A stretch of DNA of 33,514 nt from Holophagaceae bacterium (GTDB lineage: Bacteria > Acidobacteriota > Holophagae > Holophagales > Holophagaceae): contig PLUC01000260.1 in the NCBI GenBank assembly GCA_003165415.1, positions 217-33,730 on the forward strand, written 5' to 3'. The translations under genes were made by a program, and so were the position numbers. The notes beneath the pieces are model-generated. The model had not been told where the DNA came from. It worked only from the letters and a program-made list of their open reading frames with translations, and made no database searches. This document shows positions 2,075 to 10,935 of the stretch, in pieces (the stretch's first letter is position 1; each line of letters opens with the position of its first letter).

Positions 2075-2090
2075 GCCCCAGACGCGCAAC

Positions 2091-2122
2091 AAAAATGCCC
2101 GGCACCCAGCCGGGCATTTTTT
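2091..2122 (+). terminator. Intrinsic terminator after rplS
   Basis: An 8-bp perfect stem ATGCCCGG/CCGGGCAT (2095-2102 with 2110-2117) has a 7-base loop and is followed by a T tract (2117-2122). Five A residues precede it, so it could also work in the opposite direction. It lies 17 bases after the rplS stop. Confidence 0.9.
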
Positions 2123-2164
2123 CTGCGCCTGATGGTACCCTATAACCTTCGGCTAGGAGTTTCG

Positions 2165-7016: not shown

Positions 7017-8129
7017 GTGAGTCCCCTCACCGCCCCCCCCACCAACCTCGACATCCAGCTGGCCAAGGAGTCCATCTCTCCCGCCGAGCGGGCCAAGCGG
7101 ATGCAGAACCCCGGTTTCGGCAAGGTCTTCACCGAGTACATGGTGGTCATCCCCTACAACGAAGACACCGGCTGGGGCCGGGGCACCCTCAAGCCTTACG
7201 GCCCAATCAGCCTGGATCCCGCCGCGTCGGTGCTGCACTACGGCCAGGCCATCTTCGAAGGCTTCAAGGCCTACCGCCAGCCCGACGGCCACGTCAAGAC
7301 CTTCCGGCCCGAAGCCAACGCGAACCGGTTCAATGCCTCCGCCCGGCGCCTGGCCATGCCGGAGCTCCCGGTGGAACGGTTCGTGGAAGCCGCCGACACC
7401 CTCATCCGCCAGGAGCGGGACTGGGTCCCCTCCGCCATCGGCGAAAGCCTCTACATCCGCCCCTTCATGATCGCCACTGAGGCGGCCCTGGGCGTCAAGC
7501 CTTCCCACGAGTACCTGTTCCTCATGATCGCCTCGCCCTCCGGGGCCTACTTCGCCCAGGGCGTGAAGCCGGTCACCGTGTGGATCTCCGAGAACTACGT
7601 CCGGGCCGCGCCCGGCGGCACCGGGTCGGCCAAGTGCGCCGGCAACTATGCCGCCAGCCTCATCGCCCAGAAGGAGGCCAAGGAGGAGGGCTGCGACCAG
7701 GTGGTCTGGCTGGACGCCGTGCATCGCCGCTACGTGGAGGAGATGGGCGGCATGAATATCTTCTTCGTGTACCAGGAAGAAGGCAAAACCGTGCTGGTCA
7801 CCCCGCAGCTCACCGGCACCCTGCTCCCCGGCATCACCCGCATCACCCTCATGGAGCTGGGCAAGTCCCTGGGCTTCGCCGCCGAGGAACGGCGCATTTC
7901 CGTGGAAGACTGGCAGGCCGCCCTCCAGGATGGCCGCATGACCGAAGCCTTCGCCTGCGGCACCGCCGCCGTCATCACCCCCATCGGAACGGTCAAGTCC
8001 AACCACGGCCAGTGGATCATCAACAAGGGCGAATCCGGACCGGTGGCCATGCAACTGCGCAAAGCCCTGCTGGACCTCCAGCACGGCCTGGCCCCCGACA
8101 CCCACCACTGGCTGCACGAAATCTGCTAG
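7017..8129 (+). CDS. ilvE: Branched-chain-amino-acid aminotransferase
   Basis: Fold-type IV PLP enzyme that interconverts Leu/Ile/Val and their 2-oxoacids with 2-oxoglutarate/glutamate. At 370 residues it belongs to the longer BCAT-II (eukaryote-like) type rather than the 310-residue E. coli type. Visible motifs are HYGQAIFEGFKAYR (about 74-87), YIRPF (146-150), the PLP lysine K206 in GSAKCAGNYAASL, the family signature around VEEMGGMNIFFVY, and the phosphate-binding ACGTAAVITPIG. The start is a GTG 5 bases after AAGGAG; the upstream ATG at 6981 lies inside the preceding gene. It is probably cotranscribed with the MocR gene and ends at a strong terminator. Confidence 0.95.
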   Translation: MSPLTAPPTNLDIQLAKESISPAERAKRMQNPGFGKVFTEYMVVIPYNEDTGWGRGTLKPYGPISLDPAASVLHYGQAIFEGFKAYRQPDGHVKTFRPEANANRFNASARRLAMPELPVERFVEAADTLIRQERDWVPSAIGESLYIRPFMIATEAALGVKPSHEYLFLMIASPSGAYFAQGVKPVTVWISENYVRAAPGGTGSAKCAGNYAASLIAQKEAKEEGCDQVVWLDAVHRRYVEEMGGMNIFFVYQEEGKTVLVTPQLTGTLLPGITRITLMELGKSLGFAAEERRISVEDWQAALQDGRMTEAFACGTAAVITPIGTVKSNHGQWIINKGESGPVAMQLRKALLDLQHGLAPDTHHWLHEIC

Positions 8130-8184: not shown

Positions 8185-8220
8185 AAAAAGAGAGGACCCA
8201 TCGCTGGGTCCTCTCTTTTA
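8185..8220. terminator. Bidirectional intrinsic terminator between convergent genes
   Basis: A perfect 15-bp stem AAAAGAGAGGACCCA/TGGGTCCTCTCTTTT (8186-8200 with 8205-8219) encloses a 4-base loop TCGC. T runs leave the stem on both strands, so it can stop ilvE transcripts from the left and the repeat-protein transcripts from the right. Confidence 0.93.
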
Positions 8221-8235
8221 TTGGATGTTGAGAAC

Positions 8236-8835
8236 TTAGGCCTTGGGAGCGGCTTCCTTCTTGGGGGCGGCCTTCTTGACCTTCTTCGCGGGCTTGGCGG
8301 CCGGGGTGGCAGGCGCGGGGGCGGCGGCCGGAGCGGCAGTAGTCTGGGCGGTCAGCGCGGGGGCGGCGGGAGCGGCTTCCTTCTTGGGGGCAACCTTCTT
8401 GACGGCCTTCTTCTTCGCGGGCTTGGCGGGCTTGGCGGCCGGGGTGGCGGGCGCGGTGGCGGCGGCCGGAGCGGCAGTAGTCTGGGCGGTCAGCGCGGGG
8501 GCGGCGGGAGCGGCTTCCTTCTTGGGGGCGACCTTCTTGACGGCCTTCTTCTTCGCGGGCTTGGCGGGCTTGGCGGCCGGGGTGGCGGGCGCAGTGGCGG
8601 CGGCCGGAGCGGCAGTAGCCTGGGCGGTCAGCGCGGGGGCCTTGGGGGCGGCGGCAGCGGCGGGAGCCTTCTTCTCGACCTTCTTGTCGGTCTTGACGAC
8701 GGTGGTCTTCTTGACTTCGGTGGTCTTCTTGACTTCGACCTTCTTGGTCTCTTCTTTCTTAACGGGCGCAGGGGCCTGGGCGAAAGCGGGGCTGATGAGG
8801 ACGGCTGCGATGAGCAGGGCAGCGAGTTTGTTCAT
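8236..8835 (-). CDS. Exported Lys/Ala/Pro-rich repeat protein, histone-H1-like tail
   Basis: A 199-residue, strongly basic, low-complexity protein. MNKLAALLIAAVLISPAFAQ is a clear Sec signal peptide. Next comes a Lys/Val/Thr-rich stretch (KKVEVKKTTEVKKTTVVK) and then about three in-frame tandem units of 41-46 residues of the kind KPAKPAKKKAVKKVAPKKE followed by AAPAAPALTAQTTAAPAAA. The Lys-Ala-Pro pattern resembles histone H1 or AlgP C-terminal tails, but the signal peptide argues for a periplasmic or cell-surface site, for example binding acidic envelope polymers. GGAGA lies a few bases before the ATG. A small hairpin (ACCGGC/GCCGGT, 8854-8868) lies in the leader. No enzymatic domain is present and the function is unknown. 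An alternative reading in the opposite strand was rejected. Confidence 0.8.
   Translation of the reverse strand: MNKLAALLIAAVLISPAFAQAPAPVKKEETKKVEVKKTTEVKKTTVVKTDKKVEKKAPAAAAAPKAPALTAQATAAPAAATAPATPAAKPAKPAKKKAVKKVAPKKEAAPAAPALTAQTTAAPAAATAPATPAAKPAKPAKKKAVKKVAPKKEAAPAAPALTAQTTAAPAAAPAPATPAAKPAKKVKKAAPKKEAAPKA
8251..8640 (-). repeat. In-frame tandem repeat array, units of 123 and 138 bp
   Basis: Near-identical units begin at 8251, 8374 and 8512 (plus-strand orientation GGCTTCCTTCTTGGGGGC), 123 and then 138 bases apart, the third being partial. Both periods are multiples of three and lie within the repeat protein, encoding 41 and 46 residues. The 15-base difference removes one KPAKK-type pentad. 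Such arrays change copy number by slippage or recombination. Confidence 0.85.
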
Positions 8836-8983
8836 TGGGTTTCTCCAGTAGAAACCGGCACGGCCGGTGATGGCTTCCAAATAAGCACGATTCGGGCCAA
8901 TTTTTAATGATTGAAATTACGCGAGTTGACAAAAGGCGTTGACAAATCCCAACGTCGATTCCTGCAACGTGTGGCAATCTGCA

Positions 8984-10420
8984 TCACGGGTTGGATTCCT
9001 CGCTCCCGTCCGCCAGCCCCAGTTCCTTCAACTTCCGGTACAGGGTGGTGCGGTCCTTGCCGAGGATTTCCGCCACCCGGCTCTTCCGGTGCTCGTGCTT
9101 GAGCAGTACCTGGATGTAGCGGCTTTCCAGCTCATCCAGGGTTGGGAGGTGGTCCCAGGCCTCGATCAGTTCCAGCAGGGGGGTGGGAGCCTGGGGCAGC
9201 CCGCCGCCCCGGGTGCGCAGCTCGTCCCGGATCTTGTCGGGAAAGTCCTCCGGGGTGATCTCCCGGCCCCGGCTGAGCTGGGTGAGGTGCTCGATGATGT
9301 TGGCCATCTCCCGCACGTTGCCCGGCCAGCTGTAGCCGTGCAGCTGCTTGCGCGCGTCCGCGCGGATGCGGTAGGACTGGTGGTCCTTGCGCGAGCACTC
9401 CCCCAGGAAATGATCGATCAGGGCCGGGATGTCGGAGAGGATCTGGCCGGTGCGGGCATCCCTGGACCAGCGGTCCCGCACCGGTGGCACCCGGATCTCC
9501 ACCACACAAAGACGATAGTAGAGGTCCTCGCGGAACTTGCCGGCCTTGACCATGGTCGCCAGGTCCCTGTTGGAGGCCGCGATCACCCGCACGTCCACCT
9601 TGACCGTCCGGTTCCCGCCCACCCTGCGCACCTCCTGCTCCTGGAGCACCCGCAGCAGGCGGACCTGGAAGTTGGCCGAGGTCTCGCCGATCTCGTCCAG
9701 GAAGATGGTGCCGCCGGTGGCCTCCTCAAAGAAGCCCTTCTTGTCCGACACGGCGCCGGTGAAGGCCCCCTTGACGTGGCCGAACAGCTCCGACTCCAGC
9801 AGCCCCTCGGAGAGGGCTCCGCAGTTGATGGCTACGAACGGACGCTCCTTGCGGTCGCTGCTCATGTGGATGTTCTGGGCCACCAGCTCCTTGCCGGTCC
9901 CGCTCTCGCCGATGATAAGCACCGTGGTCCGGCTGTTCTGCAGGGAGGCGATGGTCCGGTAGACCTCCATCATCGCCGGGCTGGAGCCGATCATCAGGCT
10001 GTGGCGCAGGCTGGGCGCCGCATCCGTCTGCTTGCGCCCCTCCTTGCTCTCCTTCATGACAATGGCTCGCTTCACCAGCGACTTGAGCTCCTCGTTGTTC
10101 CAGGGCTTGGAGATGAAATCGAAGGCCCCTTCCCGCACCGCCTCCAGGGCCTTTTCCAGGGTGCCGAAGCCGGTGAGGAGGATGGTCTCCACCCCCAGGG
10201 GCTTGGCCACCCGCAGCAGGTCCAGCCCGTCCTGGGCGGCCTCCAGGTTGATGTCCGAGAGCATGAGGTCGAACCCGCCCGCCTGGAGCTGGCGGATGGC
10301 CTCATCGGGCCGGGTGGCCTTGACCACCTCCACCCCGGGGCTGCCCATGCCTTCCCCCAGCAACAATTCCAGGAGATCGCAGGTTTCCTGGCTATCATCC
10401 ACCACCAGCACTCTCGTCAT
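8984..10420 (-). CDS. Sigma-54-dependent response regulator, NtrC family
   Basis: A 478-residue transcription activator. The receiver domain occupies about residues 1-120 (D8-D9, phospho-acceptor D56, K105 in ISKPW). The AAA+ domain runs about 140-385 with Walker A GESGTGKE (171-178), the sigma-54 contact loop GAFTGA (218-223), Walker B GGTIFLDE (236-243) and WPGNVREM. A Fis-type helix-turn-helix ends the protein ([23 protein letters not shown]). It should open sigma-54 promoters once phosphorylated. Between the VPPVRDR segment and SDIPAL there is an extra stretch of about ten residues (317-329) where most relatives have only REDIP. No histidine kinase or obvious -24/-12 promoter lies next to it, so its targets are unknown. 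Confidence 0.95.
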
Positions 10421-10445
10421 CGCCCACCCGTCCCATCTCCGAAGT

Positions 10446-10515
10446 TAAGGCAGCGCGTCAAAATAATCTGTTCTTTCCCAGATTATTTTGCTGCGGTGCC
10501 TTATGCCGGGACACG
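10446..10515. repeat. Palindromic element copy 1 (REP/MITE-like)
   Basis: Inner stem CAAAATAATCTG/CAGATTATTTTG (10459-10470 with 10479-10490, 12 bp, loop TTCTTTCC). The outer stem TAAGGCA/TGCCTTA (10446-10452 with 10497-10503) is partly continued by CGCG/TGCG. The hairpin is followed by TTATGCCGGGACACG (10501-10515). It lies just upstream of the NtrC-family gene, outside any coding region. The same architecture recurs 145 bases downstream. Confidence 0.7.
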
Positions 10516-10596
10516 AATTGAATGTCCAGGCTATCTTGTCTCGTAGGCTAACGCATCCTGCGCTGGAATCGTACTGCGAAGGGACCTAACCTTTAG

Positions 10597-10660
10597 GGGG
10601 CGTTCAGAATAACCTGCGCTTCCCAGGTTATTCTGTTACGCCCCATTATGCCGGGACACG
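10597..10660. repeat. Palindromic element copy 2 (REP/MITE-like)
   Basis: Inner stem CAGAATAACCTG/CAGGTTATTCTG (10605-10616 with 10624-10635, 12 bp, loop CGCTTCC), outer stem GGGGCGT/ACGCCCC (10597-10603 with 10638-10644), then the same TTATGCCGGGACACG (10646-10660). Differences from copy 1 within the stems are matched on both arms, so the fold is conserved while the sequence is not. It ends about 40 bases before xseB. Confidence 0.7.
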
Positions 10661-10698
10661 TAACAATGGGCTGGTATTCCATGACACAGGCGAACCTT

Positions 10699-10935
10699 AT
10701 GACGACCCAACCCGCTTCCTTCGACGATGGCCTGGACCGGCTGGAGACCCTGGTCCAGAAGCTGGAGGGCGGGCACCTGAGCCTGGAGGAAGCCCTGCTG
10801 GGCTTCGAGGAAGGGGTGAACCTGAGCCGGGCCCTGCAGCAGCAGCTGGCGGACGCCCAGCGCCGGGTGGAGGTGCTCAAGCAGGGCCTGGGCGGGGAAT
10901 ACCGCACGGATCCCCTGGAAGGAGACGCGTCTTGA
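10699..10935 (+). CDS. xseB: Exodeoxyribonuclease VII small subunit
   Basis: Small coiled-coil subunit of exonuclease VII, which degrades single-stranded DNA from both ends together with XseA. The core ASFDDGLDRLETLVQKLEGG, then LSLEEALLGFEEGVNL and QQQLADAQRRVEVL, is the full XseB helical hairpin; length from this ATG is 78 residues, normal for the family. In-frame ATGs at 10681 and 10648 are alternatives, but 10648 lies inside the palindromic element and neither has a good ribosome-binding site; AGG lies 8 bases before the chosen ATG. The gene overlaps ispA by four bases (TTGA). xseA is not in the window; the xseB-ispA-dxs order is common in bacteria. Confidence 0.88.
   Translation: MTTQPASFDDGLDRLETLVQKLEGGHLSLEEALLGFEEGVNLSRALQQQLADAQRRVEVLKQGLGGEYRTDPLEGDAS

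What the first reader, a model, noticed from the sequence alone, without database searches (positions are those of the whole stretch)
10446..10660. Two copies of a palindromic element with compensatory stem changes
Both copies have a 12-bp inner stem, an outer stem and the same trailing TTATGCCGGGACACG, 145 bases apart in the same orientation. Stem sequences differ (AAAATAATCTG versus CAGAATAACCTG) but both arms changed together, so the folded form is under selection or is regenerated. The layout (a constant GTGTCCCGGCATAA box next to a palindrome on the other strand) recalls REP sequences mobilised by IS200-like/RAYT transposases, but no transposase is present here. It could also be a structured RNA upstream of xseB or the NtrC-family gene.
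Basis: partly seen in the sequence, partly recalled or inferred. Interest (0 to 1): 0.6.

Follow-up and report, generated by a model that had tools for sequence, protein, structure and literature searches.

The report
Dispersed hairpin MITE family in Holophagaceae
The two look-alike hairpins upstream of xseB are two copies of a roughly 100-base non-coding mobile repeat present about 50 times in this bacterium and in several related genera, inserted between genes and often exactly at stop codons; it is an apparently undescribed family of a known kind of bacterial mobile element.

Summary
The two copies (10444-10551 and 10591-10694) belong to a ~107-nt family. A covariance model built from seven copies finds about 49 in this genome (45 nearly full, 4 halves) and 43-63 matches in each of seven genomes of other genera of the same family, but 0-2 in its closest relatives and none outside the family. 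Each copy has a long 5' hairpin, the constant box TTATGCCGG, a weak second hairpin, and a third copy of the hairpin-arm motif at the 3' end, between TTA and TTA. Hairpin 1 shows strong compensatory change (19 of 25 pairs; 0 of 500 shuffles). Copies are intergenic in every gene orientation, so this is not an xseB riboswitch or a terminator. Three orthologous empty sites in a relative show ~104-bp insertions at stop codons; TAA/TAA and TTC/TTC flanks and a TTA-core-TTA-core-TTA tandem suggest a 3-bp TTA-type target duplication. REP/RAYT is not supported: several copy-rich genomes lack any Y1 transposase, and the Y1 genes here are an ordinary IS200 without the box. Best reading: a new bacterial MITE family resembling CIR, NEMIS and RUP; the mobilising transposase was not found. 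Ordinary in kind, apparently undescribed.

The parts
10444..10551 (+). Element copy a (whole model match). Core 10449-10548 between TAA (10446-10448) and TAA (10549-10551), the presumed 3-bp target duplication
   Evidence: R1 match 111.9 bits, E 4e-31 (this copy was in the seed); flanking TAA/TAA read; boundary statistics
10446..10503 (+). Hairpin 1 of copy a: outer and inner stem, 8-nt loop, conserved mismatch/wobble in the middle
10501..10515 (+). Constant box TTATGCCGGGACACG of copy a (TTATGCCGG is the family-wide part)
10505..10531 (+). Weak hairpin 2 of copy a (GCC.GGACA...TGTCC.GGC); about 70-83% paired over the family, much weaker than hairpin 1
10526..10551 (+). 3'-terminal third copy of the arm motif (CAGGYTATYTTG...CG..GGC TAA), imperfect terminal inverted repeat to the 5' end
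   Evidence: 5' arm against 3' end 62% paired, 61 double changes
10591..10694 (+). Element copy b (whole model match), starting with CTTTAGG, 3' end decayed (GGCGAA), ending about 5 nt before the probable xseB start codon at 10699
   Evidence: R1 match 85.1 bits (in the seed)
10605..10635 (+). Inner stem-loop of hairpin 1, copy b (CAGAATAACCTG / CAGGTTATTCTG)
10646..10660 (+). Constant box TTATGCCGGGACACG of copy b
8984..10420 (-). Neighbour: NtrC-type response regulator (receiver, Sigma54_activat, HTH_8), divergent from xseB; not part of the element
10699..10935 (+). Neighbour: xseB, exonuclease VII small subunit; not part of the element
   Evidence: PF02609; start chosen by comparison with L220

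Best explanation
The two palindromes are copies of a ~100-bp non-autonomous, non-coding mobile element (a bacterial MITE) that has spread through the intergenic regions of several Holophagaceae genera (Acidobacteriota). A transposase not identified here would act on the shared arm motif, which occurs three times per element: twice inverted, forming hairpin 1, and once at the 3' end. The element inserts at TTA-like sites and leaves a 3-bp direct repeat. In this 66% GC genome such sites are scarce and often stop codons, so copies frequently abut or supply the stop codon of the neighbouring gene. The hairpin changes in a compensated way between copies, either because hairpin-forming master copies are selected for mobility or because one arm templates repair of the other. 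Shown: family, copy number, structure and covariation, intergenic placement, presence against empty sites. Inferred: transposition, duplication length, the transposase, the cause of the covariation.
For: About 49 copies in this genome from R1, with sharp boundaries: left TTAG conserved in 41-44 of 44 copies per position, right GGC+TTA in 34-44, no conservation outside except a weak GW before the left TTA. Patchy distribution: 43-63 matches in G007, G015, G017, G023, G028, G032, G034; 11-15 in G014, G019, G026, G031; 0-2 in same-genus G001-G005; none in 23 genomes of other families (counts include matches on both strands of some copies), and none above noise in 55 loci of Holophagaceae and outgroups. 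Three orthologous empty sites in G005 (L103, L162, L168). Direct repeats TTA/TTA in 24 of 44; TAA/TAA and TTC/TTC in two of the four copies with an unusual left triplet. Tandem copies in L151 of period 102 with one shared TTA. Covariation: 24 double-changed pairs and 157 cells against 47 +/- 5.5 in shuffles. Element GC 46-52% against 66% for the window; TTA and TAA are each about 0.15% of trinucleotides. Identical 3' ends in eight copies of G015 suggest recent amplification there.
Against: No autonomous partner was found: no Y1 with these ends, no IS630 with element ends, no DDE_Tnp_4 in copy-rich genomes; DDE_Tnp_1 genes exist in seven of eight copy-rich genomes but their ends could not be read. 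Only three clean empty sites, and only L103 fits a 3-bp duplication without a further substitution or indel. The window's own site is not a clean empty/filled pair. Terminal inverted repeats are weaker than hairpin 1. The model was trained on seven copies from the same genome, so counts in other genera are approximate.
Confidence: 0.85

Rival explanations
1. REP/REPIN-type repeat mobilised by a Y1 (RAYT/TIRYT) transposase that cuts single-stranded hairpins.
For: Imperfect hairpin with a conserved mismatch next to a constant box; extragenic; high copy number. Acidobacteria carry TIRYT genes flanked by long TIRs, and REP termini also supply stop codons (PMC3733652).
Against: This genome's Y1 genes are an IS200 with CCGGCAGAGCCGG-type ends plus a remnant, with no element or box beside them. 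G017, G023 and G028 have 47-61 matches and no Y1_Tnp, although these MAGs are 71-91% complete. No GTAG tag at the foot of the hairpin. Length ~100 bp against 20-40 bp for REPs.
Confidence: 0.07
2. A cis-acting structured RNA (leader, riboswitch or RNase-processing site) selected for its fold at each locus.
For: Strong covariation of hairpin 1 and a two-hairpin fold; some copies end 0-30 nt before a start codon, including copy b before xseB.
Against: 44 copies beside unrelated genes: 15 <<, 10 >>, 10 <>, 7 ><, two without a left gene, so no sense-strand preference; no Rfam match near threshold; absent at the same locus in relatives; decayed copies persist (L159, L164, L166). A secondary RNA effect at some loci is not excluded.
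Confidence: 0.05
3. A bidirectional transcription terminator or protein-bound (nucleoid) site family.
For: Abuts stop codons in many cases and occurs between convergent genes.
Against: Ten of 42 scorable copies lie between divergent genes, including both window copies; the hairpin is followed by TTATGCCGG, not a T-run; filled/empty sites and patchy distribution need mobility anyway.
Confidence: 0.03

Closest known systems
CIR (CerM/CcrM-associated intergenic repeats of Caulobacter and Brucella), as reviewed in PMC2229807
   Same: About 110 bp, intergenic, two hairpin arms joined by a linker rather than one end-to-end stem, abundant in one lineage, mobility mechanism unknown
   Different: No sequence relation known (not tested directly); no conserved GANTC site in the family consensus; Acidobacteriota, not Alphaproteobacteria; a third arm copy and TTA flanks
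Correia/NEMIS elements of Neisseria (PMC2229807)
   Same: ~107-bp short form and a longer form with an internal insert (here 36 nt giving ~143 nt), TA-containing termini, terminal inverted repeats, stable predicted RNA fold
   Different: Different sequence; the strong pairing here is the internal hairpin 1, not end to end; the insert is itself a hairpin
RUP of Streptococcus pneumoniae (PMC2229807)
   Same: ~107 bp, intergenic, TA-containing target
   Different: RUP has a proposed IS630 partner; here no IS630 with matching ends was found
REP/REPIN with RAYT; GTAG and CGTC palindromic repeats (PMC3733652, PMC3116915)
   Same: Extragenic hairpins that can supply stop codons; CGTC repeats also lack a known transposase
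   Different: Longer, no GTAG tag, no RAYT association, apparent 3-bp target duplication

Membership tests
Bacterial MITE (general class) | Short (<200 bp), no protein encoded, many dispersed copies | tested here: met
   107 nt, ~49 copies in this genome
Bacterial MITE (general class) | Filled and empty orthologous sites | tested here: met
   L103, L162, L168 filled here and empty in G005
Bacterial MITE (general class) | Target site duplication | tested here: inconclusive
   TTA/TTA in 24 of 44, TAA/TAA and TTC/TTC in one each; L103 fits, L162 needs one substitution, L168 does not fit exactly
Bacterial MITE (general class) | Terminal inverted repeats | tested here: met
   5' arm and 3' end 62% paired at the best register with 61 double changes; next best register 50%; imperfect
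Bacterial MITE (general class) | Partner transposon with matching ends | tested here: inconclusive
   Not found among PF01797, PF13358 or PF13359 genes or by a 3'-end pattern in this genome; ends of PF01609 genes could not be read. Most accepted bacterial MITEs of this size lack a named partner too (PMC2229807)
REP/RAYT | Y1 (PF01797) transposase gene flanked by the repeat | tested here: not met
REP/RAYT | GTAG tetranucleotide at the foot of the hairpin | tested here: not met
   Family consensus is (GW)TTAGG...CCTTATGCCGG
CIR | Two hairpin arms joined by a linker | tested here: met
   Hairpin 1 strong, hairpin 2 weak
CIR | Conserved GANTC site in a terminal loop | tested here: not met
   No GANTC at a conserved position in the aligned copies
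Known Rfam RNA family | Match above the gathering score | tested here: not met
   Only sub-threshold matches outside the elements

The most novel reading that the evidence does not exclude
A hairpin-dependent mobile element moved by an enzyme other than a Y1/RAYT transposase, whose stem is actively regenerated by one arm templating the other, so that compensatory changes appear even between nearly identical copies.
Probability: 0.15. Interest if true: 0.6.

Novelty: new member of a known kind. Interest (0 to 1): 0.35.

Why it matters
It adds an apparently undescribed, high-copy intergenic mobile family to Acidobacteriota and explains a conspicuous hairpin pair without invoking a new riboswitch. 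Its compensated stem changes between close copies offer a natural data set for asking whether bacterial palindromes are kept by selection or by templated repair, and its stop-codon placement shows how a TTA-like target can steer insertions to gene ends in a GC-rich genome.

Tried and rejected
Integron attC (the TTAGGC start resembles GTTAGGC): rejected by eye, no constant core-site pair and the copies are scattered; no integrase search was made. REP/RAYT: see rivals. IS630 partner: DDE_3 genes found, but only L347 holds an element, about 1 kb away and not at the ends. DDE_Tnp_4 (suggested by the TTA repeat): no hit in copy-rich genomes. The repeat CTGCAGTTTGGAC was first suspected as the autonomous form; it also follows many unrelated palindromes, so it is a separate repeat. 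Window locus as empty-site test: relatives carry a DUF4412 gene there, so not clean. Plasmids, phages and viral contigs: no match. A first gene caller trained on all long ORFs chose wrong strands and was replaced.

Full report
The window holds two exact boxes TTATGCCGGGACACG 145 nt apart, each preceded by a hairpin whose inner 12-bp stems are perfect. Such stems occur at only four places in the window and in none of 20 dinucleotide shuffles. The genome has the exact box six times and nine more with one or two mismatches; four of the five with two mismatches look like chance matches in other contexts.

Reading the other copies showed that the repeated unit is about 107 nt, not just the hairpin and box. 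An alignment of seven copies gave a model that finds, in this genome, 45 nearly full copies and 4 halves at E below 2e-4 (my count of distinct places; many places also match weakly on the other strand). Anatomy: (i) GW TTA; (ii) hairpin 1, about 25 pairs with a conserved mismatch or wobble in the middle; (iii) CCTTATGCCGG; (iv) a weak second hairpin; (v) a third copy of the arm motif, CAGGTTATTTTG..GCAACGGC; (vi) TTA. The window copies are 10444-10551 and 10591-10694.

Hairpin 1 covaries strongly. On 54 copies from several genomes, 19 of its 25 pairs show a change on both sides, and no shuffle of 500 reaches the observed values; slid controls fall to about 34-46% paired. That alignment was fitted to the structure, which inflates the figure, but the seven-copy MAFFT alignment made before any model gives the same sign. 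In 27 of 33 own-genome copies the 3' arm is the best or tied-best partner of its own 5' arm. Between copies less than 10% different there are 10 compensated double changes, 22 one-sided ones and no uncompensated double change; these pairs of copies are not independent. So the palindrome is selected or regenerated; I cannot tell which.

Distribution. Of 60 genomes searched (this one included), 19 have matches, all within the same family, and 23 genomes of other families have none. Seven have 43-63 matches each (both strands counted), four have 11-15, and the rest few or none; the same-genus genomes G001-G005 have 0-2. Fourteen named Holophagaceae and other Acidobacteriota/outgroup loci around dxs, and 41 further outgroup loci, hold none above noise. 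This patchiness suits a mobile element better than an inherited regulatory RNA.

Context. A simple codon-usage gene caller places all 44 examined copies between genes, apart from two where a predicted gene overlaps the 3' half (L121, L128). Orientation classes are 15 <<, 10 >>, 10 <>, 7 >< and two undetermined. Neither a terminator nor a sense leader explains this. Many genes pointing at the element end within 6 nt of its boundary, using TAG of the TTAG start or the 3' TTA/CTA as stop. TTA and TAA are each only about 0.15% of trinucleotides in the window, so a TTA-like target would often be met at stop codons.

Insertion. About 2.4 Mb of G005, whose DNA is about 83% identical at this locus, was compared with the flanks. 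Three loci are clean: L103 (GTCTAGACG empty; GTTTAG...GGCTTAGACG filled), L162 (GGATAAGGAC; GGATTAG...GGCTAAGGAC) and L168 (TTCTGAGG; TTTTTAG...GCCTGAGG). L103 fits a 3-bp duplication; L162 needs one substitution; L168 is one base off. Copy a has TAA on both sides and L124 has TTC on both sides, where most copies have TTA on both. A tandem pair in L151 has period 102 with one shared TTA. I take a 3-bp TTA-type duplication as likely, not proven.

At the window's own locus the relatives read here (G005, L220; G003, L222) have a DUF4412 gene between the NtrC gene and xseB, and G001 and G002 have a gap of the same size; this genome lacks that gene and holds the two elements instead. Copy b ends about 5 nt before xseB.

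Mobiliser. Y1_Tnp hits here are an IS200 with its own ends and a remnant; G017, G023 and G028 have none. IS630 genes carry no element at their ends. DDE_Tnp_4 is absent from copy-rich genomes. A 3'-end pattern finds in this genome only known copies. DDE_Tnp_1 remains open. The MAGs are incomplete, so absence is weak evidence genome by genome.

Comparison. The closest described kinds are the small intergenic MITEs: CIR with two hairpin arms, NEMIS with 107/155-bp forms, RUP with 107 bp (PMC2229807). The ~143-nt variants here carry a 36-nt hairpin insert between hairpin 1 and the box, which parallels NEMIS. I found no paper describing this family in Acidobacteriota, within an open-access library only. 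I therefore file it as a new member of a known kind.

Noticed in passing
G000 contig ends, e.g. L189-L208: A repeat beginning CTGCAGTTTGGAC(A/T)TT(C/T)CGTCC occurs about 53 times, mostly near contig ends, and starts directly after many different perfect palindromes, including a likely terminator; it looks like a high-copy insertion that targets hairpins.
   Followed up: partly
L157, L161, L163, L165, L169, L172, L174: About seven copies are a ~143-nt form with a 36-nt hairpin insert (CAGGTCAACGCAGGCGTTGACCTG or CTGGCGACGCATGCGTCGCCAG) at the same point between hairpin 1 and the box; the CTGCAG repeat is sometimes inserted after that hairpin (L170, L171, L005).
   Followed up: partly
window 10421-10698; L220 2972-3766, L222: Relatives carry a DUF4412 gene between the NtrC-type regulator and xseB; it is missing here, where the two elements lie.
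   Followed up: partly
G015: Eight copies share an identical 25-nt 3' end CAGATTATTTTGCAGCAACGACTTA, some at contig ends: a probably recent amplification.
   Followed up: no
window 2084-2128 and 8186-8220: Two other perfect 12-bp hairpins; the first lies between predicted genes and matches the model weakly (15 bits), the second lies between the converging genes ending at 8129 and 8236. Probably terminators.
   Followed up: no
window 8236-8880 (-): Alanine/lysine/proline-rich low-complexity protein with internal repeats.
   Followed up: no
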